DNA from: Arthrobacter caoxuetaonis
GTDB lineage: Bacteria > Actinomycetota > Actinomycetes > Actinomycetales > Micrococcaceae
Reading direction: 5' to 3'
DNA: 64,000 nucleotides
NCBI RefSeq assembly: GCF_023921125.1
Contig: NZ_CP099466.1
Location: forward strand, 806,001-870,000
Positions 28,255 to 43,464 of the stretch are shown piece by piece; the first letter of the stretch is position 1; every line of letters begins with the position of its first letter. Made by a program: the position numbers and the translations under genes. A model generated the notes under the pieces. The model had not been told where the DNA came from. It worked only from the letters and a program-made list of their open reading frames with translations, and searched no databases.

Positions 28255-28415
28255 ATAGGCGGCAACAGCGTGCCCCCAAGGGCTTATTCCTCAGCACCCT
28301 GATATTTCCGCCGCAATCAAGGTACGTTGTGCCCTGTTGCTGCCGGGATCCGGCGTGCATTCTGTAGTTTCCGGGAGAAACCGAGAAGACAGCTATGGCT
28401 GAAGGAGTGTTTGCG

Positions 28416-29894
28416 ATGACGGAAACTACTTCCACCGAGGTGGTGACAGGGCTCTACATCGGGGGTGAGGCGCGGGCCGGTGAGGACATGCTGGAGGTCG
28501 CTGACCCGGCCCGGCCCGGGGCGCCTGCAGGTTATGCGGCCGCGGCATCTGCCCGGGACGTCGCAGACGCCGTGGAGGCGGCGAAGGCAGCGTTCCCGGC
28601 TTGGGCTGCGCTGAGCCCGCAGGAGCGGGCGGCGCAGATGGCCGAAGCGATCGCCGGCATAGCCGACCTGCGGGATGAGGACGCCGCCATCCTCACGCGT
28701 GAAAACGGCAAGATCGTCAGCGAAAGCTGGGTTGATGCGCTTGTCTTCGAGATCCGTTGGCAGCTCGCCCTGGCCCTGGCCGGGGACGTCGAGCGCGAGG
28801 AGATCCTCGAAACTGCTCCGGGGATTCCGGTGCGGACCAGTGTGACGTATCAGCCGCTGGGCGTGGTGACGGTGATCGTCCCGTTCAACTGGCCCGTGGC
28901 CATCCTGGGAGCGTCCCTGCCCCACGCGCTGCTCGCCGGCAACACCGCGATCGTCAAGCCGCCGCCCACCGCCCCGCTGGCCACCACCCGGATTGTGCAG
29001 AGGGTGGCCGAGAAGCTGCCGCCCGGAGTGATCAACGTGGTCACCGGCCGGGACGAGGAAATGTCCGGACTGATCCGGAACGACGACGTCGCCAAGGTCT
29101 GTTTCACCGGAAGCGTCGGAGGCGGAAAACGAATCATGGAAGCAGCCTCCGGGACGTTGACCCGGGTGACCCTGGAACTGGGCGGCAATGACGCGGCAAT
29201 TATCCTGGACGATGCGCTGCTCGACGAGACCCGCCTCGACCGCTTGTACGCAGCGGTGTTCGATACCACCGGCCAGATCTGCATGAATGCCAAACGCATC
29301 TATGTGCATCGCTCCCGCATGGAGGAACTGGTGGCCGGGCTCTCCAGCCGCCTGGAAAAGGTGGTCATCGGGTACGGCCTGGAGGAAGGGGTCACCATGG
29401 GGCCCCTGCATTCTCCGGCCCAGCGCACCTTCGTGCGTGAGCTGATCGAGGAGGCAAGGCAGGCAGGCGCCGAGGTCCGCGAGTTCGGACAGCTGCCGGA
29501 GGAACCGGAGATCCGGCAGGGCAACTTCCTGAAGCCGGCACTTGTCCTCAACCCCTCCCCGGACCTGCGGGTGGTAACCCAGGAGCAGTTCGGGCCCGTC
29601 ATTCCGATCATGGCGTTCGACAGCGACGACGAAGCTGTGGCCGCCGCCAACGACAGCTGGGCGGGCCTTTGCGGGTCCGTTTGGACCGAGGACACGGCCC
29701 GGGCGAACGCCGTTGGCAGCCGGATGGAGTGCGGCTACGTCTGGGTGAATGACCACGGCGCCACCAGGCTGGACCTTCGCGCACCGTTCGGCGGAATGAA
29801 GCAGTCGGGCATGGGCCGCGAACAGGGAATCCACGGCGTCCGGGCCTTCCAGGACACCCGTTCCATTGCCCATCTGGATGAGGGTGCACTGTGA
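28416..29894 (+). CDS. NAD(P)-dependent aldehyde dehydrogenase
   Basis: A 492-aa aldehyde dehydrogenase. Catalytic residues are visible: N158 in VPFNWPVA, E254 in TLELGGND and the nucleophile C289 in TGQICMNAKR; the cofactor loop reads FTGSVGGGK. It oxidises an aldehyde to the acid; the specific aldehyde is unknown. I chose ATG 28416 because AAGGAG lies eight bases before it; the in-frame ATG at 28395 would place that ribosome site inside the gene. GTTTC-CGGGA-GAAAC upstream (about 28365-28380) is a short inverted repeat in the shared promoter region. Confidence 0.9.
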   Translation: MTETTSTEVVTGLYIGGEARAGEDMLEVADPARPGAPAGYAAAASARDVADAVEAAKAAFPAWAALSPQERAAQMAEAIAGIADLRDEDAAILTRENGKIVSESWVDALVFEIRWQLALALAGDVEREEILETAPGIPVRTSVTYQPLGVVTVIVPFNWPVAILGASLPHALLAGNTAIVKPPPTAPLATTRIVQRVAEKLPPGVINVVTGRDEEMSGLIRNDDVAKVCFTGSVGGGKRIMEAASGTLTRVTLELGGNDAAIILDDALLDETRLDRLYAAVFDTTGQICMNAKRIYVHRSRMEELVAGLSSRLEKVVIGYGLEEGVTMGPLHSPAQRTFVRELIEEARQAGAEVREFGQLPEEPEIRQGNFLKPALVLNPSPDLRVVTQEQFGPVIPIMAFDSDDEAVAAANDSWAGLCGSVWTEDTARANAVGSRMECGYVWVNDHGATRLDLRAPFGGMKQSGMGREQGIHGVRAFQDTRSIAHLDEGAL

Positions 29895-30433: not shown

Positions 30434-31201
30434 TTAGTGCCGCTCGGCGCGTGCTGCCCGGACCAGGCTGTACTCCGCGGGATCCAGTGCCGCTTCGGCA
30501 CCGCCGGACAGCAGGACTGTCACGTCAGGATGCAGCTGCAGGACAGAGGCCGGCACATCCGGAGTGACCGGGCCCGTCAACGCCGCTGCAATGGCTTGTG
30601 CCTTGCGGGGCCCTGAGGCCAGGAGGACCAGCGACCGGGCCTCACGGATGGTGCCCAGCCCCTGGGTCAGCGCGTGGGTGGGGACATCCCGCAGCGACGG
30701 GAAGAACCGGGCATTCGCTTCCCGGGTACTGGCTGTCAGCGCCACGACCCGGGTGCGGGAATCCAGCGCCGACCCCGGCTCGTTGAACGCCAGATGCCCG
30801 TTGCTGCCAATCCCCAGCACCTGTACATCGATGCCGCCTGCGGTCCGGATGGCGGCCTCGTAGCGGTCGGCGGCGAGATCCGGATCCGCCGCCGCGCCGT
30901 CGGGCACCCGTACAGCCGCCGGATCCAGGCCCAGCGGATCAATGACTTCGCGCCGGACCACCGCGTGGTAACTCTGGGGGTGCGCAGGCGGCAGCCCGAG
31001 GTATTCGTCCAGGGCGAAGCCGCGCAGCGGAGACAGGTCCCCGGCCCGGCGTGCCAGCTGCTCATAGAGCGGCAGCGGCGAAGATCCGGTGGCAATGCCC
31101 AGGACCGGGTTTCTGCGTGCGGCCAGGCGCGCCAGGACTACATTCGCTGCCGTCAGGCCCAGGTCCCGGGGGGACGCGGCGGCAAGCACCTGAACGCTCA
31201 T
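30434..31201 (-). CDS. nagB: Glucosamine-6-phosphate deaminase family protein
   Basis: A 255-aa NagB-type enzyme, converting glucosamine 6-phosphate to fructose 6-phosphate and ammonia. Key features are all present: phosphate loop LGIATGSSP, catalytic D65 in FALDEYLGLP, HPQSYHAVV, then GIGSNGHLAFNEPGS with H136 and E141, and SRTRVV. ATG 31201 overlaps the amidohydrolase stop (ATGA). Last gene of the long ROK-headed operon, so the operon's sugar should enter glycolysis as an amino-sugar phosphate. It lies apart from any N-acetylglucosamine deacetylase (NagA) or PTS gene. Confidence 0.88.
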   Translation of the reverse strand: MSVQVLAAASPRDLGLTAANVVLARLAARRNPVLGIATGSSPLPLYEQLARRAGDLSPLRGFALDEYLGLPPAHPQSYHAVVRREVIDPLGLDPAAVRVPDGAAADPDLAADRYEAAIRTAGGIDVQVLGIGSNGHLAFNEPGSALDSRTRVVALTASTREANARFFPSLRDVPTHALTQGLGTIREARSLVLLASGPRKAQAIAAALTGPVTPDVPASVLQLHPDVTVLLSGGAEAALDPAEYSLVRAARAERH

Positions 31202-32241
31202 GCCTGCGCCGCGTTCGAGGAGAGCGAGGCGGCCAGAGCGGGATCCGCCGGCGCCCATTCCGCGAGTCCGAGCAGCCCGGCCGCATTGGCTCCGAAGATC
31301 CGCTGTACGTCAGCCGCCGGCATGCCCATCTCCCAGCAGATCCGCAGCTGGTCCACCAGGTAACGCCGGGCGTAGCCCCGCGGGAACCAGGAGGAGTCGG
31401 TGCCGAAGACGATCCGCTCCGGGCCATGGGTTTCGTAGAATCGGCGGAAAACATCCTCCAGGGTCAGTTTCTGCGCCATGAACCGCACCCACTGGTTGGA
31501 GCCGGAGGTGTCCACCAGAACGTTGGGGCAGGCCCACATCAGGAACAGCACCTGCTGCACGTGCTGGATTCCGAAGTGCGGCACCACAAACGTCACATCA
31601 GGGTGGCGTTTGGCCACGGCTTCCAGCCAGGCGGGTTCAATCATCGCGTTGTGCGCAATACCTCCGGCAGAGCCGCAGTGGCCAAAGTGGATCAGCACGG
31701 GAACCTGGTACTCGGCGGCCACGCGCCACACCGCATCCGCGCCCGGGTCATCGATGCGGGAGGACATCAGCGGGGCGAACAGCTTCAGCCCGCGCAGCCC
31801 GTGGTCGCGAACTGCCCGCCGGAAATCTTCGGCGGCCCCGGGGAGAAAAGGATCCGCCATGGCGGCCAAGCCCAGGAATCGCCCGGCGCCGTGCTGCACC
31901 AGTGCGGCCATCTCCTTGTCACCGCCGGCGGTGACGAAGGCCGCGTGCTCAACGTGGTGCTCGTCCAGTTCGGTGATCCAGCGGTCAGCTTCCGCCTCCC
32001 AGCCGGCGTCCTGTCCTGTGCTTTCCGGGTCTGCGAAATCCCAGCTGCGCCGCCACTGGGCGGACATGCCGGCTACCTTCGCGGCGCGGGCCGCAGCAGC
32101 CGGGCCGGATTCCTCACAAGCGAACTGGCCGCCGGACAGGGACCGGGTGAGCGGGTCGAACGGCATCCGGAAATGCAGGTGGAAATCGATGATGGAGATG
32201 CCCTGCACCACAGGGCGGTTTCCGATTCGGGCGACGTGCAC
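31198..32241 (-). CDS. Amidohydrolase-2 family metal-dependent hydrolase
   Basis: A 347-aa TIM-barrel amidohydrolase of the ACMSD-like branch. Metal-binding H21-x-H23 is in IIDFHLHFRMPFD; later ligands are suggested by VLIHFGHCG, FVVPHFGIQH and the terminal aspartate in IVFGTDSSWFPRG. Members are decarboxylases, lactonases or hydrolases. GTG start with AGGAG eight bases upstream; it follows the PfkB gene by 11 bases and overlaps nagB. In this operon it could open a lactone, remove an acyl group or decarboxylate an intermediate; the sequence does not decide. Confidence 0.85.
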   Translation of the reverse strand: MHVARIGNRPVVQGISIIDFHLHFRMPFDPLTRSLSGGQFACEESGPAAAARAAKVAGMSAQWRRSWDFADPESTGQDAGWEAEADRWITELDEHHVEHAAFVTAGGDKEMAALVQHGAGRFLGLAAMADPFLPGAAEDFRRAVRDHGLRGLKLFAPLMSSRIDDPGADAVWRVAAEYQVPVLIHFGHCGSAGGIAHNAMIEPAWLEAVAKRHPDVTFVVPHFGIQHVQQVLFLMWACPNVLVDTSGSNQWVRFMAQKLTLEDVFRRFYETHGPERIVFGTDSSWFPRGYARRYLVDQLRICWEMGMPAADVQRIFGANAAGLLGLAEWAPADPALAASLSSNAAQA

Positions 32242-32252
32242 GGTGTGGTCTC

Positions 32253-33188
32253 CTACAGGGGCAGCGGCTCGGGCAGTACGACGGCGCCGCGGTGGTCCGG
32301 AGCGGTTGCCACCAGATCGGTGGCATAGCGGACGGCGGCAGCCAGCGCTTGGCCGGGTTCATCTCCGCGCGCGAGGCAGGCAAGGAAAGCGGCGTTAAAA
32401 CCGTCCCCGGCGCCGGTGCTGTCCACCGGTGTCACCGGGCGGGCCGGTGTGTGCAGCCAGGTCCCGTCCGGCAGGGCAAGGCCGGCCCCGCCGGCGCCCA
32501 GTTTTGCGGCCACCATGGTGGAGGTCTGCTCAGCCAGCAGCAGGGCGGCGGCCCGCGGATCCGGGTTCCCGGTGAGGCCAGCCAGCTCGTCGCTGTTTGG
32601 CAGGAACAGGTCCACTGAGCCCAGTACGCTGCGGACCTCCGCCCGGATATCTTCGGTCCAGCCCTCAGAAGGCCAGCCGGTGTCCAGCACGGTAAGGGCG
32701 CCGTTCGCATGCGCTGAAGCGAACAGCTCGCAGGCGGCCTGCCCGCGCAGCTTGGGCAGCAGGAAGTAGCCGGCCAGCACCAGGGTGCCGGTGTTCAGGG
32801 CGCCGGCAGGAACGTCCTGCGGTGTCAGTTCAGCCATGGCTCCCAGGGAGGAGATGAAGGCACGGTCCCGGCCGGGCGCCTCAACTGCCACAGTGATGCC
32901 GCTGGGCTGCCCGGCGTCCCGCACCAGCACTGCCTGAAGCCCGGGCAGCGCGAGCTCCTGCTCCACCAGGCGGGTGGAGGCGTCTTCTCCGACCTTGCTG
33001 ACCAGGATGGTTTGCTGTCCCAGCCCGGCACAGCGCACGGCGAGGTTCCCCGCGGATCCGCCCAGCCGGATGTCGATGCCAGGCACAATCGCTTCCGTGC
33101 CGGGCTCCGGCAGGGCCGCAGCTCCGGACACCATGATGTCCAGGTTGGTGTTCCCTGCAACGGTGATGGTGGCCTTTGCACCGCTCAT
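32253..33188 (-). CDS. PfkB-family carbohydrate kinase
   Basis: A 311-aa ribokinase-fold sugar kinase. The N-terminal substrate segment reads VAGNTNLDIMVSG, followed by RLGGSAGNLAVRCAGLG; the anion hole and catalytic base are in DSTGAGDGF (GAGD at 259-262, D262 the base). It would phosphorylate a sugar or amino sugar with ATP. The ATG overlaps the upstream lyase stop by four bases. Placed between a lyase and a NagB-type deaminase, the likely product is a hexosamine or fructosamine 6-phosphate. FrlD-type fructoselysine kinases belong to the same family. Confidence 0.88.
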   Translation of the reverse strand: MSGAKATITVAGNTNLDIMVSGAAALPEPGTEAIVPGIDIRLGGSAGNLAVRCAGLGQQTILVSKVGEDASTRLVEQELALPGLQAVLVRDAGQPSGITVAVEAPGRDRAFISSLGAMAELTPQDVPAGALNTGTLVLAGYFLLPKLRGQAACELFASAHANGALTVLDTGWPSEGWTEDIRAEVRSVLGSVDLFLPNSDELAGLTGNPDPRAAALLLAEQTSTMVAAKLGAGGAGLALPDGTWLHTPARPVTPVDSTGAGDGFNAAFLACLARGDEPGQALAAAVRYATDLVATAPDHRGAVVLPEPLPL

Positions 33189-34675
33189 GCCGCGGCCGCC
33201 AGGGCCTGCGCGCGTTCCAGCAGGGCAGCGCGGGCAGCATCGATGCCGGTGCGCAGTTCCGCGGCGCGGACGGCAAGGGTACGGGCGGCTTCCGTCGCAC
33301 GGTCCGCGGTGGCAGTAACAGCCTTGATGCCGGGGCTGCCTGCCTGCGGCCGGTCCAGGATCCGTCCCGGATCAGTTCCGGCGGCAAGCACGAGGTCAGC
33401 CAGGTCCGTGCTGATGTTCCCGGCGGACAGGGCCCCGGTCACCTGCTCCCGCGACCACGCTGTGGGGTCAGCGGACTTGAACAGCCGCCCGACGACGTCG
33501 TGCGCGCCCCGCCAGGGCACGCCGGCGACTGCCAGGGCTTCTGCCACGGACGTGGTGGTGGCACCGGAGCGGACGATCTCCGCCTTGTCCGGAAGCCGCA
33601 GCACGGTGAATTCGTTCAGCAGCCCGTCCAGCATGCGCACAAACCGGATCACCCGGTCCGAGGCACGCCAGAGGTGCTTCTGCACATCTGTGGTGGCGTT
33701 GTTGGAATCCTCGTACCAGCCGGAGTTGATGTTCGCGTAGGTGGCGGACATGTCTGCGGCAGCGGCGCCGGCCATGGACACCATGTGTTCCAGCACCACC
33801 GGGTTCTTCTTCTGCGGCATGATCGAGGAGCCCTGGGTGTAGGCGTCCGGGGTGGCCACCCAGCCGAAAGTCATCCATTCCAGCAGTACCCGGGAGAAGC
33901 GTGCGCCGGTGGCACAGATCCGCGCCTGCGCTGCGGCCAGGCGCATAAAGTGCTCCGCGCCGGCCACCGCCTCATAGCTGGACGTGAACGTTGACTCAAA
34001 GCCCAGCAGGTCAGCGACGGTCTGCGGGTTGATCGGCACGTCGGATCCGGTAAACGCCGCGGAGCCCAGCGGGGAAACGTTCATCTCCGCGTAGATGTCA
34101 AGCAGCTCCCGTCCCTGGCTCAGCAGGGCTTCGGCCAGGCCCCCCAGAACATGGCCGATGGTGGTGGGCTGGGCAGGACGCCGATGGGTGAAACCGATGA
34201 TCAGCGCGTCGGCATGCCGGCGTGCCAGTTCGGCGGCGTCCGCGGCGCTCTGGAGCACCAGGTCCGCCTGGTCCAGGATCTGGCGGCGCAGCACCATCCG
34301 GAAGGCCCCGGCGTCAAGGTCGTTGCGGCTGCGGGCCAGCTGAACGTCCAGCTCCGAGGTGGAGATGCCGCAGGCTGCGGCGAGCTGCTGTTCCATGAAG
34401 TAGTACGGGTCTTCCACGGAGCCGTCGAAGCTGTATTCCTGCCGGTCGTCGGTGATCCGCTCCCACAGTTCCAGCAGGCCCTTCTCCAGCCGGGCGGAAC
34501 GCTCCCGCGGAAGGATGCCTTCGTCGTCGAGCATCCAGACATGGGCCAGGGAAGCTTCCACCATGGGCGGGTAGATGTTCGCGGCAGCTTCCTCGAACGC
34601 GTCGCGCAGGTGGTTGTCCCAGTAGACGGACAGATCCGGGCGGTCGGTCAGGAGCGTACGGGAGGGGGTGTTCAT
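33185..34675 (-). CDS. Argininosuccinate-lyase-like fumarate lyase (ASL/fumarase superfamily)
   Basis: A 496-aa member of the aspartase/fumarase superfamily. The three conserved regions are present: RSRNDLDAG (about 115-123), GFTHRRPAQPTTIGH (161-175) and the signature GSSIMPQKKNP (282-292) that carries the catalytic serine loop. It differs from true argininosuccinate lyase at normally fixed positions (SRNDQ is SRNDL, YTHLQRAQP is FTHRRPAQP). No other arginine genes are nearby. It therefore probably eliminates fumarate from a different N- or O-succinyl/malyl compound, as EDDS lyase does. Tight operon spacing: two bases after the permease gene. Confidence 0.85.
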   Translation of the reverse strand: MNTPSRTLLTDRPDLSVYWDNHLRDAFEEAAANIYPPMVEASLAHVWMLDDEGILPRERSARLEKGLLELWERITDDRQEYSFDGSVEDPYYFMEQQLAAACGISTSELDVQLARSRNDLDAGAFRMVLRRQILDQADLVLQSAADAAELARRHADALIIGFTHRRPAQPTTIGHVLGGLAEALLSQGRELLDIYAEMNVSPLGSAAFTGSDVPINPQTVADLLGFESTFTSSYEAVAGAEHFMRLAAAQARICATGARFSRVLLEWMTFGWVATPDAYTQGSSIMPQKKNPVVLEHMVSMAGAAAADMSATYANINSGWYEDSNNATTDVQKHLWRASDRVIRFVRMLDGLLNEFTVLRLPDKAEIVRSGATTTSVAEALAVAGVPWRGAHDVVGRLFKSADPTAWSREQVTGALSAGNISTDLADLVLAAGTDPGRILDRPQAGSPGIKAVTATADRATEAARTLAVRAAELRTGIDAARAALLERAQALAAAA

Positions 34676-34677
34676 GC

Positions 34678-36489
34678 TTATTTCACCGGCTTCAGGTCGG
34701 GGGAGGCGGAAGAGGGAATCGGCAGCGGGGAGGCGGCGGCGGGGATGGGACCCGCCAGCGGTGTCTCCACGGTGGGACGGCGGCGCCGCAGCATCTTGGC
34801 GATGCCTCCGCTGCCCGGGTTTTCAAGCCGCTGGGAGATGATCAGGACAATCAGGATCAGGCCCATCTGCAGGGTGCCGTACGCCGCGGCGGTGCCGAAC
34901 TCGTTGGAGTAGATCCGGTTGTAGATCTCAACGGACAGCGGAGCGAACCGCGCCGGGTAAATCACCACGGAGGCCACGTACTCGCCGAAGCCCTGGATAA
35001 AGGCCATCAGGGCGCCGGCAAGGATGCCCCGGTACATCAGCGGCACTGTCACGGTGCGCAGCACCCGCCAGTGGCCGGCACCGAGGTTGCGGGCAGCTTC
35101 TTCCACAGAGGGATCGATCTGGGCCAGGGCGGCGTTGGCTGAGCGGAAGACCAGGGGAAGGAACCGCACAAAGTAGGCAACCGGGAGGATCCACAGCGAA
35201 CCGATCAGGACCTGGCCCAGGTTGAAGGGCGAGGGGCTGGCGAACGCGGTCACCAGGTTGACGCCGACGACGGTGCCGGGCAGCGCCCAGGGAATCATGA
35301 CCATCACGTCCAGCAGTCCCTTGCCCGGGCCCTTCCACCGGGTGACCACCCAGGAGGCAATAACACCGACCACGGTGCACGCGATCATGGCGATGAAGGC
35401 CATCTGGCTGCTCACCAGAATGGGTCGCAGGGTCGCCGGATCGGTGAAGATCCGGGAGAAGTTCCCCAACGTGTACTGGCTGGGCAGGATCTGTACGGTC
35501 CAGGAGCCGTCCACGGTGAAGGCCAGCAGCACGATCACGGCTGCCGGTGCCATCAGGATCAGCACCAGGACGGCGGAGCCGAGGCCTGCGCCGAGCCGGG
35601 GGAGCGTTCCGTGGATGACCTTCACGGCCTGCGGGGTGCCCTTGGACGCGCTGCGGTGAACCCGCCGGTTCTGGTACCAGCGCATCGCCAGCAGGAAGAG
35701 GATGGAGACGATGGACAGCACGGTGGACTGGGCCGCCGCCAGTTCGTAGGCGCCGGAGGTACGGGAGGCCACAATCTGCATGGTCAGGGTCTGCACGTTG
35801 TAGAACTGCGGTGCGGTAAAGGAAGCCATGGAGACCATAAAGGTCAGCAGGGCGCCGGAAACCAGGGCCGGGGTCAGCATGGGCAGCAGCACGGTGCGCC
35901 ACATGGTGAAGCGGCTGGCCCCCAGGTTCAGGGCGGCTTCTTCCATGGAAGAATCGGACCCGGCCAGGCCGGAGGAGACCGCGAGGTAGAAGTACGGGTA
36001 CATGGTCATGGTGTGGACCAGAAGCACACCCAGGACGCCGTTGGCGGAGACTGCCCCCGGGTCGGCGCCGAAGTACTGTGCCAGGAACCGCGGCAGGATC
36101 CCGCTCTCGGCGTAGAGGAAGTAGAAGGAGACGGCGCCGATCAGCGGCGGCAGTGCCATGGGCAGCATCGCGAACAGCCGCAGCACGTTGCGGCCGGGGA
36201 AATCGAAGCGGGTCAGGAGCACGGCCAGCGCCGTGCCAATGACACCGGTGGTGATTACGGAGACCACCGAGATGCCTACGGAGAGGCCCAGCGCCCGGCC
36301 GGAGTTTCCGCCGAAGAAGCCGCTGTAATTGCCCATTCCGCCGTCGACGCTGGTGCGTGCCGTGGCGAACATCGGAATCACGATGTACAGCAGCAGGACC
36401 AGGACCAGGGGAATGGCCAGCCAGTAGATGAACCGGTCCGAGGACGTGGTTCCGCTGCGGTTTCGCAGTCTTGCGGCGAGGCCGGTCAC
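34678..36489 (-). CDS. Fused ABC transporter permease (iron/sugar-phosphate/AEP-type)
   Basis: A 603-aa protein with two permease halves and about 12 helices, as in FbpB, ThiP or AfuB. Each half has its EAA loop: SMEEAALNLGASRFTMWRTV in the first (about residue 185) and SVEEAARNLGAGHWRVLRTV in the second (about 475). The C-terminal 45 residues are basic then proline/serine-rich. It pairs with the adjacent ATPase, whose stop it overlaps. This class moves Fe(III), thiamine, aminoethylphosphonate or, in AfuABC, hexose phosphates; the operon content argues for a sugar derivative. Confidence 0.9.
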   Translation of the reverse strand: MTGLAARLRNRSGTTSSDRFIYWLAIPLVLVLLLYIVIPMFATARTSVDGGMGNYSGFFGGNSGRALGLSVGISVVSVITTGVIGTALAVLLTRFDFPGRNVLRLFAMLPMALPPLIGAVSFYFLYAESGILPRFLAQYFGADPGAVSANGVLGVLLVHTMTMYPYFYLAVSSGLAGSDSSMEEAALNLGASRFTMWRTVLLPMLTPALVSGALLTFMVSMASFTAPQFYNVQTLTMQIVASRTSGAYELAAAQSTVLSIVSILFLLAMRWYQNRRVHRSASKGTPQAVKVIHGTLPRLGAGLGSAVLVLILMAPAAVIVLLAFTVDGSWTVQILPSQYTLGNFSRIFTDPATLRPILVSSQMAFIAMIACTVVGVIASWVVTRWKGPGKGLLDVMVMIPWALPGTVVGVNLVTAFASPSPFNLGQVLIGSLWILPVAYFVRFLPLVFRSANAALAQIDPSVEEAARNLGAGHWRVLRTVTVPLMYRGILAGALMAFIQGFGEYVASVVIYPARFAPLSVEIYNRIYSNEFGTAAAYGTLQMGLILIVLIISQRLENPGSGGIAKMLRRRRPTVETPLAGPIPAAASPLPIPSSASPDLKPVK

Positions 36490-37574
36490 GGCGCTACCAG
36501 CCAGACCCGGTCCGGATGCGGGAACAGGGTGACCCGGTCCCCGGGCTGCGCCCGGTCCTCTGAGTCAGGGACGGAAACCACAAGTTCCTTGCCGTTCCAG
36601 TCCACTTCGTAAACGTTGACGGCACCGGTGAACTCAGCCGTCTTGACCGTGCCCCGCAGCGTGCCCGGTCGGCTCTGGCCGCCGGTGTCCGTGTGCATGG
36701 TGAAGGATTCAGGGCGCAGGCTCACCGCTGCCGTGTCGCCGGCGGCGGCGTTGCCGGATACTGTTCCGGCCACCCGCGGGGCGCGCAGCACCGAACCGTC
36801 GGCCAGCTTGAGATGCACGGTGTCGGTTGAGGACTCCAGCACGGTGCACTCCAACACGTTGGAACGTCCGATGAACCGTGCCACGAAGGACGTGGCCGGC
36901 CGGTGGTAGACCTCCCGGGGCGGGGCAACCTGGTGCAGCCGCCCGGACTCCAGGATGGCCACGCGGTCGCTCATTGCCATTGCCTCGGCCTGGTCATGGG
37001 TGACATAGATGCTCGTGATTCCTGCAGCCTTCTGGGTGCCGCGGATTTCTGCACGGGTTTCCTCGCGCAGCTTGGCATCCAGATTGGAAAGCGGCTCATC
37101 AAGCAGCAGCACCGAAGGCTGGATGACCAGGGCCCGTGCCAGCGCCACACGCTGCTGCTGTCCGCCGGAGAGCATGTCGATGCGGCGGTCAGCGTAGCTC
37201 TCAAGGCCAACCTGCTGCAGTGCGCGGTCCACGCGCTTGTTCTTCTCAGCCCTGGCGGTGCGGCGGACGCTGAGGCCGTAGCCCACGTTGGCACGCACGG
37301 TCATGTGCGGGAACAGGGCGTAGTTTTGGAACACCATGCCGGTGTCGCGGCGGTTGGGGGCAGTGTTTGTGACGTCGCGGTCATTAAAGAGGATCCGTCC
37401 GCGGGAGGGCTGGATGAACCCCGCAACCATGCGCAGGGTGGTGGACTTGCCGCACCCGGACGGGCCCAGAAGGGTGAAGAACTCTCCGTCTTCGATGGTG
37501 AGGTTGAGGTCTGCCACAGAAGGCGCGGAACCCGGGTACCGTTTTTCGATCGATTCGAGGAAGACTCGTGTCAT
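36486..37574 (-). CDS. ABC transporter ATP-binding protein with TOBE domain
   Basis: A 362-aa ATPase. Walker A GPSGCGKST at about 36-44, Q-loop around VFQNYALFPHM, signature LSGGQQQR, Walker B VLLLDEPLSNLD and the H-loop in YVTHDQAEAMA. The C-terminal TOBE region covers about 275-355. I chose ATG 37574 because a conserved start MTRVFLESIEKRYPG follows; upstream in-frame codons translate the hairpin and are not family-like. It powers the fused permease and works with the binding protein encoded just upstream. Confidence 0.92.
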   Translation of the reverse strand: MTRVFLESIEKRYPGSAPSVADLNLTIEDGEFFTLLGPSGCGKSTTLRMVAGFIQPSRGRILFNDRDVTNTAPNRRDTGMVFQNYALFPHMTVRANVGYGLSVRRTARAEKNKRVDRALQQVGLESYADRRIDMLSGGQQQRVALARALVIQPSVLLLDEPLSNLDAKLREETRAEIRGTQKAAGITSIYVTHDQAEAMAMSDRVAILESGRLHQVAPPREVYHRPATSFVARFIGRSNVLECTVLESSTDTVHLKLADGSVLRAPRVAGTVSGNAAAGDTAAVSLRPESFTMHTDTGGQSRPGTLRGTVKTAEFTGAVNVYEVDWNGKELVVSVPDSEDRAQPGDRVTLFPHPDRVWLVAP

Positions 37575-37613
37575 GGCTGCTCTCCGCAGGGGATAGTGGG
37601 TGGAAGGTTCAGG

Positions 37614-37644
37614 AGGCGGCCGGCGCCCAGGGCGCCGGCCGCCT
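37614..37644 (-). terminator. Very stable intercistronic stem-loop between binding-protein and ATPase genes
   Basis: AGGCGGCCGGCGCC (37614-37627) pairs perfectly with GGCGCCGGCCGCCT (37631-37644) around a three-base loop. It lies 13 bases after the binding-protein stop. No U-tract follows on the minus strand, so it is more likely an mRNA-stabilising or partial terminator that keeps binding-protein output above that of the other subunits. Confidence 0.7.
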
Positions 37645-37656
37645 GTCCGGGTTTGG

Positions 37657-38721
37657 TTAGCCCTTGCCCTTGATGTTCTCGGCCCAGTAGCCGATCCATT
37701 CGGACTCGTTATCGCCGATCCGGTCCCAGTCAACGTCCATCTCCACCAGGTCCAGCTCTGTCAGCCAGGACGGGGTTTCGCTCATCTCGATTGACGGAAT
37801 CTGGTAGTAGGTTTCGGAGAGGTCCTTCTGGGTCTCTTCGCTGAAGAGGAACTCGAGGAAGGCGTCAGCAGCTTCGCTGGACGGTCCGTTCTTGATCTTG
37901 GCCACCCCGTCCACCAGCATCGGGGCACCCGATTCGGGGATCACGGGGGTGTAGGGGGCGTTCTGGTTCTCGATCTGCAGCATGACGTCCTGCAGGTTCC
38001 AGGCGCTGGCTGCGGCTTCCTGGCGGGTCACGCGCAGGTACAGGTCAGTGGGGTTGGCTGCGTAGACCTTGGTGTTGGCGTCGAGCTTGCGCAGCCAGTC
38101 GTACCCTGCCTCCGGTGAACCGGCGGCGTCGTACTGGCGGTCAATCATGGCGGAGTAGATGCTGCGCATGGTTCCGGAGGCCTCGACGTCGCGGATAGCC
38201 AGTTTGTCGGCCATCTCCGGAGCCACCAGGTCGTCCCAGTCCTTGGGCGCTTCTTCTTCGCTGAGCATGTCGTGGTTGTAGAAGATGACCTCGGCCAGCT
38301 GCATTTCGCCGACCCACAAGCCGTTCGGATCACGCAGGTCCTCGGGAACGGCGTCAATCACGGCGTCCGGGGCGGGGGCAAGGACGTCGTCGCCGGCGGC
38401 CTGCTTCATCTGCTGGCCGGTGCCGCCCCACCAGATGTCACCCTGCGGGTTGGCCTTCTCCGCGCGGATGCGTTCCAGTGCTTCCTGCGCGCCGAGGGTG
38501 AGGATTTCCACCTTGCCGGCGTAGTCCGGATTGGCTGCCTCGAAGTCGGCCACGACTGCTTCGGCGAGGCCCTTGTCCCGGGCGGTGTAGATGGTGAGGG
38601 TGCCGCCGTCGGACCCCTCGGCTCCGGCGGACGAGTCGTCCAGGCCGCAGGACGAGAGAGCCAGCATCAGCGCGAGGCCGCCGGCAACGGTGCCGAGCGG
38701 TTTGCGGAAAGTGCGTTTCAT
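37657..38721 (-). CDS. ABC transporter substrate-binding lipoprotein (Fbp/AfuA/PotD-like)
   Basis: A 354-aa binding protein with a lipoprotein signal (GGLALMLALSSCGLDD, lipobox Cys about residue 27). The mature part begins TLTIYTARDKGLAEAVVADFE and contains GDIWWGGTGQQMKQA and TKVYAANPTDLYLRV, like the group that binds Fe(III), polyamines, aminoethylphosphonate or hexose phosphates. The pairing with sugar kinase and deaminase genes favours an organic, probably anionic, amino-sugar ligand. It follows the ROK gene by 42 bases and precedes the ATPase. Confidence 0.88.
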   Translation of the reverse strand: MKRTFRKPLGTVAGGLALMLALSSCGLDDSSAGAEGSDGGTLTIYTARDKGLAEAVVADFEAANPDYAGKVEILTLGAQEALERIRAEKANPQGDIWWGGTGQQMKQAAGDDVLAPAPDAVIDAVPEDLRDPNGLWVGEMQLAEVIFYNHDMLSEEEAPKDWDDLVAPEMADKLAIRDVEASGTMRSIYSAMIDRQYDAAGSPEAGYDWLRKLDANTKVYAANPTDLYLRVTRQEAAASAWNLQDVMLQIENQNAPYTPVIPESGAPMLVDGVAKIKNGPSSEAADAFLEFLFSEETQKDLSETYYQIPSIEMSETPSWLTELDLVEMDVDWDRIGDNESEWIGYWAENIKGKG

Positions 38722-38763
38722 GTACTTCTCCTAGGGTGTGGGTGGAACGGGGTAAACGGGGGA

Positions 38764-39900
38764 CTAATCAGCGGGGGAGATAAGGGCAGAGGGGTCTTCC
38801 AGGACCCGGGCCACGGCACCGTGGAGGATGCCGGTGGTGCCCAGGGACGCGAAGGCAACATTCGGAGCCGACGGCGCCGCGGCGCGGATCCGGCTGGCCA
38901 GTGCGCTCCGGGCCGGGTCATCGAGGTCGACGGCGTCTCCGGAGAAGACCACAAGGGCAGGATTCAGGACGCAGGCGCAGACGACGGCGGCCCAGGCCCA
39001 GGCGTCCAGCACGTCGTCGCGCAGCCGCTGGGTACGCTCGTCAGCGCACATCCGCGCGATCACCGGCCCGTCGCCGTCGAGCCCTGCTGACTGGGCGGCG
39101 GCAGCGATCGCCGGTGTGCTCCAGGCTGCTTCGAAGGGTCCGCGGTTGCCGTGGGGGAGTGGGCGGGGTGCCACCGGCAGGAAACCGACCTCGCCGGCTG
39201 AGCGGGTGGCGCCGTGAAGGATCCGGCCGCCGCTGAGGATGGTGGCACCGATGCCTTCGGCGACGTGGATCAGCACGAGGTCATCGACGCCGGCTGCGGC
39301 ACCGGCGCTGCGCTCGCCGAGGGCAACAAGGTTGACGTCGTTTTCAAGAGTCACCTTCAGGCCGGTCCGGCGGTTCAGCTCCCCGGCCAGCTCGGAGCCG
39401 CTTGCCGCGGCGAAGTCGGGGGCCAGGCTGACAGTGCCGTCGTTTCCGACGACTCCGGGCAGTGCCAGCACCAGCCGGGCCGGGCTGCGGGGTGCGGCGG
39501 CAGTGAGTTCGGAAACGGCCCGCGCCGTGGATGCCACCGGATCTTCGGCGTCGAAGACGGATTCGCGGGTTTCCAGGACGCTGGCATCGAGGTCCACAAG
39601 GCTGGCACGGACGCTGCCGCGGCTGATTTCGGCGACCACCAGCACCACTGCCGACCGGTCTATTTCCATCAGGGTTCGGCGCCGTCCACCGGTGGACTCG
39701 CGCTGGCCCACCTCATGCAGGTAACCCAGTTCCTGCAGCTCGTGCACGATTCCAGTCACGGTGGAGGGACTGTAGCCGGTGGCGGCTGCGAGGTCGGTGC
39801 GGGAGATGGGGCCCTGTGAAAGGAGGGCTCCCACAACGGACTCCACCCGGATCCGGCGCAGTTCCCGGCGTCCAGTTGGTGCGTGTGAGGTGGATAACAT
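38764..39900 (-). CDS. ROK-family transcriptional regulator
   Basis: A 378-aa regulator. Residues 14-65 are a winged helix: VESVVGALLSQGPISRTDLA and SPSTVTGIVHELQELGY. The ROK effector domain follows (about 80-370). The zinc motif CxCGxxGCxE of ROK kinases and NagC is absent; the corresponding region reads FLPVAPRPLPHGNRGPFE, so it is a divergent, probably zinc-free member. ATG 39900 lies inside a 35-base inverted repeat, with no Shine-Dalgarno sequence. First gene of the eight-gene operon running to 30.4 kb, so it should control its own transcription and the whole pathway. Confidence 0.88.
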   Translation of the reverse strand: MLSTSHAPTGRRELRRIRVESVVGALLSQGPISRTDLAAATGYSPSTVTGIVHELQELGYLHEVGQRESTGGRRRTLMEIDRSAVVLVVAEISRGSVRASLVDLDASVLETRESVFDAEDPVASTARAVSELTAAAPRSPARLVLALPGVVGNDGTVSLAPDFAAASGSELAGELNRRTGLKVTLENDVNLVALGERSAGAAAGVDDLVLIHVAEGIGATILSGGRILHGATRSAGEVGFLPVAPRPLPHGNRGPFEAAWSTPAIAAAAQSAGLDGDGPVIARMCADERTQRLRDDVLDAWAWAAVVCACVLNPALVVFSGDAVDLDDPARSALASRIRAAAPSAPNVAFASLGTTGILHGAVARVLEDPSALISPAD

Positions 39901-39935
39901 TCTTACTTTATACGGTGAAGAAAGTAAGAATGCAA
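39898..39935 (-). promoter_or_regulatory. Leaderless promoter buried in a 12-base-arm operator of the ROK operon
   Basis: CATTCTTACTTT (39898-39909) and AAAGTAAGAATG (39921-39932) are perfect 12-base arms with an 11-base spacer. On the minus strand TTGCAT (39930-39935) and TATAAA (39907-39912) form a promoter with exactly 17-base spacing, and the ROK start codon is the end of the arm, six bases after the -10. Binding here would fully block the promoter. Confidence 0.75.
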
Positions 39936-40128: not shown

Positions 40129-40485
40129 GTGCCGTCCCACACCCCGCGCATTGAGGGAACACACATTTATGACACCCGGTCCAGCAGCCGGGGACGTGCC
40201 CTGAACAAAATGCTGTTCTCGCTGAAGGAAGCAAAGAACCGTGACCGGTTCAGCTCCGACGAGGCCGCTTATTGCGACGAATACCACCTCAATGCGGAAC
40301 AGAAACGGGCAATCCTGGAGCGCAATTGGAAGGCCATGACGGACATTGGAGCTTCCATCTTTTATGTCATCAAACTTGCGGCCGTCGACCGCAAATCGGT
40401 TCAGGACCTCGGTGCCGCTTTTACCGGTCTGAGCACCGAGGAATTCATCGCAGCGCTGAGATCAGGAGGGCGGAAGTTTGGCTGA
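40129..40485 (+). CDS. ligA: Extradiol (protocatechuate 4,5-type) dioxygenase alpha subunit, LigA-like
   Basis: A 118-aa small helical subunit of the LigAB family: KMLFSLKEAKNRDRFSSDE, EQKRAILERNWKAMTDIGASIFY and SVQDLGAAFTGLSTEEF are the recognisable stretches. It caps the catalytic LigB subunit and shapes the aromatic site; it has no iron site. GTG at 40129 is chosen because AAAGGAGGAG lies six to ten bases before it. It overlaps the ligB start by eight bases. Ring cleavage by this family acts on protocatechuate, gallate or 3-O-methylgallate; which one cannot be read from sequence. Confidence 0.9.
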   Translation: MPSHTPRIEGTHIYDTRSSSRGRALNKMLFSLKEAKNRDRFSSDEAAYCDEYHLNAEQKRAILERNWKAMTDIGASIFYVIKLAAVDRKSVQDLGAAFTGLSTEEFIAALRSGGRKFG

Positions 40486-41359
40486 CATCGTTTGGGGGCT
40501 GGCAACTTCGCACGTTCCATCCATCGGGGCAGCCATGGATAACGGCAAGACTTCGGACGAGTACTGGAAACCCCTTTTTGATGGCTATGCTCCGGCCCGG
40601 GAGTGGATGGCGGAGCACCGGCCCGACGTCGCAATTGTTGTGTACAACGACCATGCGAATGCCTTGGACATGTCGATCATTCCCACGTTCGCCATAGGAA
40701 CCGCGGACCATTACCGGGTTGCTGACGAAGGCTATGGGCCACGGCGCGTCCCCGATGTTGTGGGTGCGCCCGACCTCTCCGAGCACCTGCTGGTGGAAAT
40801 GATGGACGCGGGATTTGATCTGACCGTGTTCCAGGAACTCGACGTGGACCACGGCCTCACCGTCCCGCTGTCCGTGTACACCCCGGAGCCGGGGGAAGCC
40901 TGGCCATGCTCTGTGGTGCCGATCCTGGTAAACGTCCTGCACTATCCGCAGCCAACAGCGCAACGCTGCCTGGATTTTGGCGAGGCACTGGGACGAGCAA
41001 TCCGTTCCTTCCCCGAGGACATCAAGGTTGCCGTCTTTGGCACCGGGGGGATGTCCCACCAGCTTTCCGGCGAACGCGCCGGACTGATCAACGAGGACTT
41101 CGACCGGAACTTCCTCGCCAAGATTGAAACAGATCCGCAGAGCCTCGCGCAGATCTCCCGCGCGGAGTACATCCGCGAAGCGGGGTCCGAAGGCATCGAG
41201 ATGATCATGTGGCTGATCATGCGTGGCGCTCTGGGCGATGACCTTCGGCGTGTCCATGACACCTACCACGTTCCGGCGTCCAACACAGCGGCTGCACTGG
41301 CCCTGTTCGCTGCTGAAACGAGCAGCGTCCCCAGGGTGGAGGCGGGCGCAAATGGCTGA
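40478..41359 (+). CDS. ligB: Extradiol dioxygenase catalytic beta subunit, LigB-like
   Basis: A 293-aa class III extradiol dioxygenase. The Fe(II) ligands and base align with LigAB: H12 in ATSHVPS, H59 in VYNDHANAL, E241 in EGIEMIMW and the catalytic H194 in GTGGMSHQLSGERAG. It opens the ring of a catechol-type acid with O2. The start is an unusual TTG at 40478, supported by AGGAGGG at 40464-40470 and an eight-base overlap with ligA. It overlaps the transporter gene by eight bases too. Gram-positive hosts more often use 3,4-cleavage, so a meta-cleavage LigAB is notable. Confidence 0.9.
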   Translation: MADIVWGLATSHVPSIGAAMDNGKTSDEYWKPLFDGYAPAREWMAEHRPDVAIVVYNDHANALDMSIIPTFAIGTADHYRVADEGYGPRRVPDVVGAPDLSEHLLVEMMDAGFDLTVFQELDVDHGLTVPLSVYTPEPGEAWPCSVVPILVNVLHYPQPTAQRCLDFGEALGRAIRSFPEDIKVAVFGTGGMSHQLSGERAGLINEDFDRNFLAKIETDPQSLAQISRAEYIREAGSEGIEMIMWLIMRGALGDDLRRVHDTYHVPASNTAAALALFAAETSSVPRVEAGANG

Positions 41360-42728
41360 GCAGACCCCAGCGTCCACCGTTCCGGGCAGTGCGCTGCCCT
41401 CGGCTAAAAAACGCCGGCAGGTGCTTGGAGCCAGCCTGGTAGGCACCGCAATCGAGTGGTACGACTTTTTCATCTACGGTTCGGCAGCCGCCCTGATTTT
41501 CGGCCCGCAGTTCTTTCCGACAGATGACCCTACGGCCGGAACACTCGCTGCGTTTGCTTCCTTCGCTGTCGGTTTCCTGGCACGCCCGCTGGGTGGCCTG
41601 CTGATGGGGCACTTCGGCGACCGGGTCGGACGCAAGTCAATGCTGTTGTTCTCCATGCTGCTGATGGGCGCGGCCACCGTTGCCATCGGACTGCTGCCGA
41701 ACTACGCAACAATAGGCATTTGGGCGCCCATCCTGCTGGTGACTCTCCGGCTGCTCCAAGGCATCGGAGTGGGCGGTGAGTGGGGTGGAGCCGTGCTCAT
41801 GGCCGTGGAATACTCTCCCAGCAAGCGCCGTGCCTTTTATGGTTCATTCCCTCAGATGGGCCTTCCCATCGGCATCATCGGCGCGAACGTCGTGTTCGTG
41901 ATTGTCACGAATATCCTGGCACCGGAGGCATTTGAAGCGTGGGGCTGGCGTGTGCCGTTCCTCTTCAGCGCGGTCCTGATCCTCATCGCCCTGTGGATGC
42001 GCCTGAGGATCGAAGACTCGCCGGCGTTCAAGGCGGTCAAACGGGACAACAGGGAAGTGAAGGCGCCGATCCTGGACCTGTTCCGCCATCACACAGGTAC
42101 CGTGCTGCTGGCGGGAATTGTCTCGATAGCTGCCCCTGCGATCGGATATTTGTACTCGGTTTACATGCTGTCCTACGGAACCGGAACGCTGGGGCTGGAG
42201 CGGAACACCATGCTGCTGCTCATCATCTTCGGTGCTGTCTGCCATTTGGTGACGATTGCATTTGGAGCGCTGCTTGCGGACCGGTTCGCGCAGAAACCCG
42301 TCTTCCTTTGGGGTGCCGCGCTGCTCACCGCGTGGGCCTTCCCGTTCTTCTGGCTGGTGGACACGGCAAACCCGGTCAATATTGCTATTGCGTTCGCCGT
42401 GATCCTGCTGGGCCAGTCGCTGATGGCAGGGCCGCAGGCTGCCCTGATCGCCGAGCTGTTCCCCACGGAAGTCCGCTACAGCGGCGCCTCAACCGCCTAC
42501 CAGATCGGTTCCATCCTTGGCGGAGGATTCATGCCGCTGATCGCGACGGGTCTTTATGCGGCCTTTAATTCCTCCGCGCCGATCGCCGTCTACCTGCTCC
42601 TGATGGGCCTGGTCAGCTTTGCGGCCATGGCGGTGCTGAAGGTTGGGCGGTACCAGGCCTCCGCGGACGCAGGAGAGCAATCCGGCCCGGAACAGTCCGG
42701 AGTTCCGGGGCAGGGAGGAGCGGCATGA
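41352..42728 (+). CDS. MHS-family MFS transporter, probably for the aromatic acid
   Basis: A 458-aa metabolite:H+ symporter: GTAIEWYDFFIYGSAAAL opens the first helix, GHFGDRVGRKSM lies in loop 2-3, GGEWGGAVLMAVEYSP is the family helix 5 motif, and about 12 helices follow. ATG 41352 overlaps ligB by eight bases, with GGAGG upstream. Its position inside the ring-cleavage operon makes it the likely importer of protocatechuate, gallate, vanillate or syringate-like acids. A different MHS protein at 21.5 kb serves the LysR operon. Confidence 0.88.
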   Translation: MAEQTPASTVPGSALPSAKKRRQVLGASLVGTAIEWYDFFIYGSAAALIFGPQFFPTDDPTAGTLAAFASFAVGFLARPLGGLLMGHFGDRVGRKSMLLFSMLLMGAATVAIGLLPNYATIGIWAPILLVTLRLLQGIGVGGEWGGAVLMAVEYSPSKRRAFYGSFPQMGLPIGIIGANVVFVIVTNILAPEAFEAWGWRVPFLFSAVLILIALWMRLRIEDSPAFKAVKRDNREVKAPILDLFRHHTGTVLLAGIVSIAAPAIGYLYSVYMLSYGTGTLGLERNTMLLLIIFGAVCHLVTIAFGALLADRFAQKPVFLWGAALLTAWAFPFFWLVDTANPVNIAIAFAVILLGQSLMAGPQAALIAELFPTEVRYSGASTAYQIGSILGGGFMPLIATGLYAAFNSSAPIAVYLLLMGLVSFAAMAVLKVGRYQASADAGEQSGPEQSGVPGQGGAA

Positions 42729-43426: not shown

Positions 43427-43464
43427 GACCGGCGTTGCCGGCCCGGAAGAGAGGTAAGGCAGTC

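What the first reader, a model, noticed from the sequence alone, without database searches (positions are those of the whole stretch)
30434..39932. Undescribed eight-gene operon for an amino-sugar conjugate
Seen: a minus-strand run with gaps or overlaps of a few bases encoding ROK regulator, binding lipoprotein, ABC ATPase, fused permease, argininosuccinate-lyase-like enzyme, PfkB kinase, amidohydrolase and NagB-type deaminase. Known: ASL-family enzymes release fumarate from N-succinyl groups (EDDS lyase is a non-arginine case), PfkB kinases include fructosamine-type kinases, NagB forms fructose 6-phosphate plus ammonia, and an AfuABC-type importer can carry sugar phosphates. Inferred: the substrate is a sugar joined to an aspartate- or malate-like moiety, such as fructosyl-aspartate or a glucosaminyl-malate. 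The lyase frees fumarate, the kinase phosphorylates the sugar and NagB deaminates it. I know of no named pathway with this set.
Basis: partly seen in the sequence, partly recalled or inferred. Interest (0 to 1): 0.82.

Follow-up and report, generated by a model that had tools for sequence, protein, structure and literature searches.

The report
Operon predicted to eat bacillithiol fragments
An Arthrobacter-type bacterium carries an unstudied gene set that probably imports a glucosamine-malate compound, a piece of the protective thiol bacillithiol made by other bacteria, and splits it into fumarate and glucosamine for food; the substrate is inferred and not yet tested.

Summary
The eight-gene minus-strand operon is real. 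Its lyase scores below the argH cut-off (216 of 279.5), while a true argH (583 bits) lies elsewhere; its NagB is 62% identical to the genome's own NagB.

Relatives change the picture. In 17 of 20 fetched actinobacterial loci the order ROK, binding protein, ATPase, permease, lyase, PfkB is kept. Lyase and PfkB are fused in 10 loci. NagB is in only 7 of 20. In 9 of 10 fused loci a divergent PIG-L de-N-acylase with a Tat-like N-terminus sits beside rok. Lyase relatives in alphaproteobacteria and Deinococcus sit with PIG-L (10 of 16 inspected), a PfkB or ROK kinase (12 of 16) and sometimes NagB or a NagB-II-like protein (3 of 16).

PIG-L enzymes act on N-acylglucosamine, the lyase keeps the fumarate-releasing residues, NagB makes fructose 6-phosphate. 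Best reading: catabolism of glucosaminyl-malate, from bacillithiol or GlcNAc-malate; lyase gives fumarate and glucosamine, kinase traps glucosamine. Against: some lyase relatives pass the argH cut-off, the window lacks PIG-L, and the amidohydrolase is unexplained. Ten paper searches listed no such pathway.

The parts
38764..39900 (-). rok: ROK-family transcription regulator, NagC-like
   Evidence: PF00480 96.5 bits with an HTH; best curated model NagC 108.9 bits, far below its cut-off of 650
37657..38721 (-). sbp: binding lipoprotein of the AfuA/P5PA/FutA fold group
   Evidence: phmmer to PDB: P5PA 80.6, AfuA 73.9, VcA0625 72.2 bits; AF2 model pLDDT 76.6; Foldseek top FutA1, then AfuA
36486..37574 (-). 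atp: ABC transporter ATPase with TOBE domain
   Evidence: PF00005 135.3, PF08402 46 bits
34678..36489 (-). perm: fused two-domain ABC permease
   Evidence: PF00528 92.6 bits; NCBIfam models match both halves
33185..34675 (-). asl: argininosuccinate-lyase-family lyase, predicted to release fumarate from a glucosamine conjugate
   Evidence: PF00206 109 bits; TIGR00838 216 bits, cut-off 279.5; catalytic residues invariant in 20 rows
32253..33188 (-). pfkB: PfkB-family sugar kinase, predicted glucosamine kinase; fused to the lyase in a sister lineage
   Evidence: PF00294 130.9 bits; fusion in 10 of 10 frames checked
31198..32241 (-). amh: Amidohydro_2 protein of unknown role
   Evidence: PF04909 119 bits; no NCBIfam match; Foldseek top 5-carboxyvanillate decarboxylase, TM 0.58-0.60
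30434..31201 (-). nagB2: glucosamine-6-phosphate deaminase, second copy
   Evidence: 62% identical to the NagB of the nagB-nagA pair in the same genome; TIGR00502 212.9 bits, cut-off 236.9, housekeeping copy 215.9

Best explanation
The operon imports and breaks down a glucosamine conjugate whose partner leaves as fumarate; the likeliest substrate is alpha-glucosaminyl-L-malate, set free from bacillithiol (Cys-GlcN-malate), its conjugates or GlcNAc-malate. In the PIG-L-carrying actinobacterial relatives a probably exported de-N-acylase would first free the amine; in the window's lineage this gene is absent, so either the free-amine compound is taken up or the amidohydrolase does an equivalent job. 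The ABC importer brings the compound in. The ASL-like lyase takes a proton from the malyl CH2 and expels the glycosidic oxygen, giving fumarate and glucosamine. The PfkB kinase makes glucosamine 6-phosphate; NagB (this copy, or a housekeeping one where the operon lacks it) makes fructose 6-phosphate and ammonia. The NagC-like ROK protein represses until an amino sugar or its phosphate appears. Shown: genes, order, fusion, conserved residues, neighbours. Inferred: substrate, order of steps, regulation, the amidohydrolase's role.
For: Operon conserved in order in 17 of 20 loci. Lyase and kinase fused in 10 of 10 fused-type frames, each with both matches and no stop. PIG-L with NEW3 and CBM9 domains beside rok in 9 of 10 fused loci and in G232; genome-wide in 6 of 23 genomes searched, all six with the operon. 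Lyase relatives with PIG-L in 7 of 12 alphaproteobacterial and 3 of 4 Deinococcus loci inspected, kinase in 9 of 12 and 3 of 4, NagB or NagB-II-like protein in 3 of 12. Loktanella and Paroceanicella NagB pass the equivalog cut-off (250.9 and 242.1 of 236.9). Lyase residues R117, N118, T163, H164, S283, K289, N291, E296 invariant (roles recalled from ASL). A review states that all LmbE-like enzymes known by 2014 act on N-acetyl- or N-acylglucosamine cores (PMC4101496, passages). Bacillithiol is Cys-GlcN-malate (PMC3896406, passages) and is widespread (PMC6282198, passages).
Against: No ligand or product was measured. The window, like the 13 other amidohydrolase-type loci in view, lacks PIG-L. 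The Loktanella lyase passes the curated argH cut-off (299.9 of 279.5) and the two Deinococcus ones scored lie just under it (276.5 and 264.1). The large PIG-L is far below the BshB, Mca and MshB cut-offs and its only solved relative by sequence is LnmX, so its substrate is open; its NEW3 and CBM9 domains may mean a larger glycan. Elimination of a glycosidic C-O bond is not known for this family (recalled). L043, L077 and L080 have lyase and importer without PIG-L, kinase or deaminase in view; L041 likewise. Nonomuraea has a related PIG-L with kinase and permease but no lyase in 22 kb. The link between window-type and alpha/Deinococcus lyases has only 85/87 support on long branches. The amidohydrolase is unexplained.
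Confidence: 0.48

Rival explanations
1. The substrate is a sugar joined through nitrogen to aspartate: a Heyns compound (N-(2-deoxyglucos-2-yl)-aspartate, giving glucosamine and fumarate) or an Amadori compound such as fructosyl-aspartate. The lyase does its usual C-N elimination, the kinase phosphorylates the sugar, NagB deaminates.
For: C-N elimination is the normal reaction of ASL and EDDS lyase; EDDS lyase, the closest solved lyase by sequence (125.5 bits; identified through PDB 6G3H, PMC12363623 passages), handles many N-substituted aspartates. A more distant lyase on a Cereibacter plasmid stands with a SIS protein nearest to the fructoselysine 6-phosphate deglycase model (79.7 of 430 bits). 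The Heyns form would give glucosamine and so fits NagB.
Against: An N-linked aspartate has no amide for the PIG-L enzymes that accompany the lyase. The deaminases are NagB or NagB-II-like (313.4 bits against 26.9 for the deglycase model). An Amadori compound would give 1-amino-1-deoxyfructose, which is not a NagB substrate (recalled).
Confidence: 0.2
2. The substrate is a larger or different N-acylglucosamine glycan or glycolipid carrying a dicarboxylate part; bacillithiol plays no role.
For: The large PIG-L proteins carry NEW3 and CBM9 domains and look exported in actinobacteria (RR motifs in 7 of 7 N-termini read by eye); PIG-L plus kinase plus permease without a lyase in Nonomuraea.
Against: I know of no common glycan with such a part; the set keeps a small-molecule importer, a kinase and a lyase and in the window no glycosidase.
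Confidence: 0.17
3. The lyase is a diverged argininosuccinate, adenylosuccinate or other fumarase-superfamily enzyme with no sugar substrate, and the kinase and NagB handle an unrelated sugar.
For: Best curated model is argH (216 bits); the Loktanella relative passes the argH cut-off (299.9) and public records call many relatives argH.
Against: Window lyase below the argH cut-off, ArgH motif AYNRDLQED replaced by WYEDSNNATTDVQ, true argH next to an argG-like ORF elsewhere. The lyase is fused to the sugar kinase in 10 loci and keeps sugar genes as neighbours in three phyla.
Confidence: 0.1

Closest known systems
Argininosuccinate lyase / EDDS lyase (fumarase-aspartase superfamily)
   Same: Fold family, signature loop SSIMPQKKNP, fumarate-binding residues; EDDS lyase entries are the best PDB sequence match (125.5 bits)
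   Different: Below the argH cut-off; ArgH arginine-side motif replaced; sits in a sugar operon; fused to a kinase in one lineage; NPVxxE instead of NPDxxE
Bacillithiol and mycothiol enzymes of the PIG-L/LmbE family (BshB, Bca, MshB, Mca)
   Same: PIG-L domain proteins stand beside the lyase in relatives; the small Deinococcus PIG-L scores 145-147 bits to MshB (cut-off 224)
   Different: None in the window operon; large forms have NEW3 and CBM9 domains; all are below the equivalog cut-offs; context looks catabolic, not biosynthetic
Amadori operons (fructoselysine frl, fructose-asparagine fra; recalled)
   Same: Importer, sugar kinase of PfkB type and a final enzyme that frees the nitrogen
   Different: A lyase of the ASL family instead of a SIS deglycase; NagB; PIG-L in relatives
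nagBA amino-sugar operon
   Same: NagB 62% identical to the housekeeping copy; NagC-like regulator
   Different: No NagA; lyase and PfkB kinase in front
AfuABC sugar-phosphate importer
   Same: Binding protein in the same fold group
   Different: About 25% identity; ligand untested; alphaproteobacterial and Deinococcus relatives of the set use another importer family

Membership tests
Argininosuccinate lyase (ArgH) | Score over the curated equivalog cut-off TIGR00838 (279.5) | tested here: not met
   Window lyase 216 bits; true argH of the genome 583.3. Relative in Loktanella passes with 299.9
Argininosuccinate lyase (ArgH) | Fumarate-binding and catalytic residues of the superfamily | tested here: met
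   R117, N118, T163, H164, S283, K289, N291, E296 invariant in 20 of 20 rows; roles recalled
Argininosuccinate lyase (ArgH) | Arginine-side motif AYNRDLQED as in the genome's own ArgH | tested here: not met
   WYEDSNNATTDVQ in 13 of 14 window-clade rows, WWEDSNNATTDVQ in L033
Argininosuccinate lyase (ArgH) | Turnover of argininosuccinate | not testable with these tools
   Needs an assay
Glucosamine-6-phosphate deaminase (NagB) | Catalytic motifs LDEY, NGHxAFNEP and phosphate-binding Lys | tested here: met
   LDEYLGL, GIGSNGHLAFNEPG, SGPRKAQA aligned with B. subtilis NagB and with operon NagBs; roles recalled
Glucosamine-6-phosphate deaminase (NagB) | Score over TIGR00502 cut-off (236.9) | tested here: not met
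   212.9; the genome's housekeeping NagB, between a GntR-type gene and nagA, also falls short at 215.9, so the miss is weak evidence
Bacillithiol / glucosaminyl-malate catabolic pathway (proposed here) | De-N-acylase of PIG-L type in the same locus | tested here: not met
   Absent from the window and from 14 of 14 amidohydrolase-type loci; present in 9 of 10 fused loci, G232 and 10 of 16 relatives inspected
Bacillithiol / glucosaminyl-malate catabolic pathway (proposed here) | Binds and cleaves glucosaminyl-malate | not testable with these tools
   Needs compounds and assays
Amadori (frl/fra) operons | SIS-family deglycase | tested here: not met
   No SIS gene among the eight genes; the SIS protein in relative L079 is NagB-II-like
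AfuABC sugar-phosphate importer | Binds hexose phosphates | not testable with these tools
   Fold group shared; ligand needs an experiment
Ferric-binding protein (FbpA/FutA) | Iron-binding tyrosine cluster | tested here: not met
   FutA2 YYY aligns to Leu-Gln-Asp; W241-D245 (WNLQD) invariant in 18 rows; one pairwise alignment only, although FutA1 is the top fold match

The most novel reading that the evidence does not exclude
A bacillithiol-scavenging pathway found in three phyla: a PIG-L amidase strips the cysteine or acetyl group, and a new ASL-family enzyme cleaves the malyl glycoside by beta-elimination (a fumarate-releasing 'glycosidase' with a C-O leaving group), in one lineage fused to a glucosamine kinase, feeding fumarate and GlcN6P to central metabolism. 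It would be the first catabolic route for one of the most widespread bacterial thiols, run in part by bacteria that do not make it.
Probability: 0.4. Interest if true: 0.85.

Novelty: new variant of a known kind. Interest (0 to 1): 0.71.

Why it matters
Bacillithiol-type thiols have been called the most broadly distributed low-molecular-weight thiols in biology (PMC6282198, passages), yet I know of no route by which they are broken down for food, and the ten listings seen here showed none. If right, many genes now named argininosuccinate lyase in sugar operons are wrongly annotated, a new type of glycoside cleavage exists in the fumarase/ASL superfamily, and the fate of released bacillithiol becomes testable with one gene set. 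Even if the malate part is wrong, the lyase-kinase fusion with PIG-L and NagB neighbours points to an undescribed amino-sugar conjugate pathway.

Tried and rejected
Argininosuccinate lyase proper: set aside for the window protein on score, motif and the argG-argH pair elsewhere (argG recognised by eye). It is not excluded for relatives, one of which passes the argH cut-off.

I first noted the PF01182 hit at C1:1826417 as the canonical NagB; it scores 62-83-bit-type Pgl neighbours only by family and lies between ORFs that I take by eye for opcA and tpi, so I read it as a 6-phosphogluconolactonase (no model was run on it). The housekeeping nagB is at C1:301283, between a GntR-type regulator and a nagA-like gene. 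The first notebook entry still carries the wrong wording.

Ferric importer: disfavoured by the missing Tyr cluster. Amidohydrolase as a plain stand-in for PIG-L: the two never stand together in 24 window-clade loci (14 with amidohydrolase only, 9 with PIG-L only, L063 with neither), but the deepest-branching relative, G232, has both, so a few gains or losses explain the pattern and it is weak evidence. Structure search for the amidohydrolase gave decarboxylase-type folds at modest TM; it has no relative in the plasmid collection at 1e-15. The lyase relatives L040, L042, L044, L045 and L046 lie in other contexts with no PIG-L in view (0 of 5). Phyllobacterium L087 has ROK, importer, SIS and a PfkB (37%) without lyase or PIG-L; its SIS protein fits no model well.

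Paper searches (open-licence PMC only; listings, up to 20 rows each) showed no described pathway; nothing wider is claimed.

Rows dropped or doubled: L062, L065, L067, L070 and L071 were taken as repeats of L026, L017, L016, L015 and L023 on contig length and not counted again. L066 and L016 are 99.1% identical over 18 kb, so the 14 amidohydrolase-type loci are 13 distinct ones. L007, L013 and L015 are left out of the PIG-L count (flank cut or operon incomplete). L083 was fetched for its PIG-L and has no lyase in view. Of 27 records with the alpha-type lyase I inspected 12, picked by hand; of Deinococcus, 4 with the lyase. The plasmid gene tables are incomplete; the stretches were therefore also searched by six-frame phmmer. 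The pattern scan finds close relatives only, and searches scored only the first candidates of each genome.
Full report
OBSERVATION. The eight genes are present as described, on the minus strand. ROK 39900-38764, binding lipoprotein 38721-37657, ATPase 37574-36486, permease 36489-34678, lyase 34675-33185, PfkB 33188-32253, amidohydrolase 32241-31198, NagB 31201-30434, with gaps of 42, 82, -4, 2, -4, 11 and -4 bases. The genome has 3.93 Mb in two contigs; the window is C1:806001-870000. The nearest lyases in the first scan are in Arthrobacter citreus, A. koreensis and A. gandavensis (96-97% identity).

DISTRIBUTION. A pattern scan of the genome collection, which finds close relatives only, gave 20 loci, all actinobacterial. 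The six core genes stand in order in 17 of 20 (kinase of L018 cut by the contig end); L007 and L013 begin at contig ends inside the operon and L015 keeps only a pfkB remnant. The amidohydrolase is in 12 of 20, NagB in 7 of 20, all 7 with the amidohydrolase. Samples: 7 of 29 genomes of the genus, 13 of 295 of the family, 8 of 396 of the order; 3 of 396 of the phylum, of which G334 groups with ArgH. So the core is fixed and NagB is an add-on of Arthrobacter operons.

FUSION. In 7 of the 20 loci (three Brachybacterium, Tessaracoccus, a Propionibacteriaceae MAG, Galactobacter, Helcobacillus) and in L061, L063 and L064 from the order search, lyase and PfkB form one open frame: 10 of 10 frames carry both matches and no stop. 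Lyase and kinase therefore act in one pathway, probably one after the other.

PIG-L. Divergent from rok and directly beside it, 9 of 10 fused loci carry a protein of about 925 aa related to a Deinococcus PIG-L (in L026 it lies in two frames); the two actinobacterial ones scanned (L019, G232) have PIG-L, NEW3 and CBM9 domains. Seven of seven N-termini read by eye show a twin-arginine motif before a hydrophobic stretch (no predictor was run). The exception is L063 (genome G714), which has none genome-wide. G232, the deepest branch of the clade, has PIG-L, amidohydrolase, lyase and a ROK kinase. In 14 amidohydrolase-type loci with the flank in view, the window included, there is none (13 distinct loci). 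Genome-wide this PIG-L was found in 6 of 23 genomes searched, five fused-type and G232; it was missing in 13 other operon genomes and in 4 operon-free ones of the genus. Eight genomes hold 3 to 5 PIG-L genes each, so adjacency by chance is unlikely, though the loci share ancestry.

OTHER PHYLA. The plasmid collection holds 185 records with a lyase relative at 1e-20. Of the alphaproteobacterial type (27 records) I inspected 12: L035-L038, L043, L047, L076-L081. Seven have PIG-L (L035-L038, L047, L078, L081); nine a sugar kinase (PfkB in L036-L038, L047, L078, L081; ROK kinase in L035, L076, L079); three a deaminase (NagB in L035 and L076, a NagB-II-like SIS protein in L079); L043, L077 and L080 show none of these. 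Of four Deinococcus loci with the lyase (L039, L041, L082, L085), three have PIG-L and a PfkB kinase; the small PIG-L scores 146.9 and 145 bits to MshB in L039 and L085 (cut-off 224). Five more distant lyase relatives show no PIG-L. The window kinase is 35% identical to that of D. wulumuqiensis. The six unsplit actinobacterial PIG-L proteins match the Deinococcus one at 268-289 bits. The tree puts window, alpha and Deinococcus lyases on one side of a branch against ArgH and the rest at 85/87 support, on long branches, so common descent is likely but not shown.

THE LYASE. It falls below the argH cut-off (216 of 279.5); the genome's argH (583.3 bits, next to an argG-like ORF) is elsewhere. Against this, the Loktanella relative passes the argH cut-off (299.9) and two Deinococcus ones nearly do (276.5, 264.1). 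Residues R117, N118, T163, H164, S283, K289, N291 and E296, equivalent to the fumarate-binding and catalytic set of ASL (roles recalled), are invariant in 20 rows. The stretch that in the genome's ArgH reads AYNRDLQED is WYEDSNNATTDVQ in 13 of 14 window-clade rows (WWEDSNNATTDVQ in L033), PFTDMNDSEGETQ-like in alpha and PFGDINDPGPDMQ-like in Deinococcus rows.

KINASE, DEAMINASE, REGULATOR. The kinase place is filled by PfkB or by ROK kinases. NagB of the window is 62% identical to the genome's other NagB, which lies between a GntR-type regulator and a nagA-like gene. In Loktanella and Paroceanicella NagB passes the equivalog cut-off; in Roseomonas a SIS protein is NagB-II-like (313.4 bits, cut-off 430) and not deglycase-like (26.9). 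Two unrelated deaminase families beside the same lyase make GlcN6P the likely product of the kinase step. The regulator is closest to NagC among curated models, far below its cut-off.

IMPORTER. The binding protein matches P5PA, AfuA and VcA0625 by sequence and FutA1 and AfuA by fold (model pLDDT 76.6). The Tyr triplet of FutA2 aligns to Leu-Gln-Asp, and WNLQD is invariant in 18 rows, so an organic ligand is likelier than iron.

INFERENCE. PIG-L/LmbE enzymes known by 2014 work on N-acyl- or N-acetylglucosamine cores (PMC4101496, passages). A lyase of this family releases fumarate. A sugar kinase and NagB follow. The known compound with a GlcN core, an N-acyl group and a part that can leave as fumarate is glucosaminyl-malate in bacillithiol and its precursor (Cys-GlcN-malate, PMC3896406, passages). 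Elimination of a glycosidic oxygen would be new for the family; fumarase eliminates a hydroxyl from malate (recalled). Bacillithiol-type thiols are widespread, and mycothiol genes are the actinobacterial ones (PMC6282198, passages), so the window's bacterium would be scavenging.

WHAT DOES NOT FIT. The amidohydrolase has no role in the model: by fold it is nearest to decarboxylases. The window lineage lacks PIG-L. The large PIG-L is far below the BshB, Mca and MshB cut-offs and its only solved relative by sequence is LnmX; NEW3 and CBM9 domains may mean a larger glycan. Nonomuraea has a similar PIG-L with kinase and permease but no lyase in the 22 kb seen. Some lyase loci have only the importer (L041, L043, L077, L080).

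LITERATURE. Ten searches of the open-licence library, seen as listings, showed no pathway of this kind. Papers used were seen as passages only: PMC4101496, PMC3896406, PMC6282198, PMC12363623.

VERDICT. A real, conserved and, as far as searched, undescribed amino-sugar-conjugate operon.

Noticed in passing
window 40478-44550, + strand: Aromatic ring-cleavage cluster divergent from rok: class III extradiol dioxygenase (388 bits, cut-off 317), an MFS-like ORF, an alpha/beta-hydrolase-like ORF and a CHA/oxaloacetate aldolase (317.8 bits, cut-off 179) (the two middle ORFs judged by eye).
   Followed up: partly
window 28395-29894, + strand: Aldehyde dehydrogenase-family gene convergent with the operon's end; no curated model reached its cut-off among the best 25.
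   Followed up: partly
L045 7956-10562 (Cereibacter sphaeroides plasmid pB): Distant lyase relative beside a SIS protein nearest to fructoselysine 6-phosphate deglycase, a UTRA regulator and an amino-acid-type ABC importer: maybe an Amadori-type variant.
   Followed up: partly
L036 1058-1942, L047 94-978, L081 610-1521: A DMT/EamA-type exporter gene lies next to the PIG-L gene in three of the twelve alphaproteobacterial loci; it could export the acyl part, e.g. cysteine (function recalled).
   Followed up: no
L087 2406-9997 (Phyllobacterium zundukense): ROK, importer, SIS protein and a PfkB 37% identical to the window kinase, without lyase or PIG-L; the SIS protein fits no curated model well.
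   Followed up: partly
L084 5264-12706 (Nonomuraea gerenzanensis): Related PIG-L (42%) next to PfkB- and permease-like frames but no lyase in the stretch.
   Followed up: partly
L040 1-10500 (Streptomyces sp. NBC_01707 plasmid): Distant lyase relative inside a cluster with adenylation-domain, ATP-grasp and PLP enzymes, maybe a biosynthetic use of a fumarate lyase.
   Followed up: no
L080 8447-15601 (Terrarubrum flagellatum): Lyase-importer set followed by nadA, L-aspartate oxidase and nadC, an odd neighbour for a fumarate-releasing enzyme.
   Followed up: no
L026 1830-4621 (Helcobacillus massiliensis): The PIG-L gene is spread over two overlapping frames, a frameshift or sequencing error.
   Followed up: no
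L015 11431-11715 (Arthrobacter sp. AQ5-06): Operon ends in a short pfkB remnant; amidohydrolase not found downstream.
   Followed up: no
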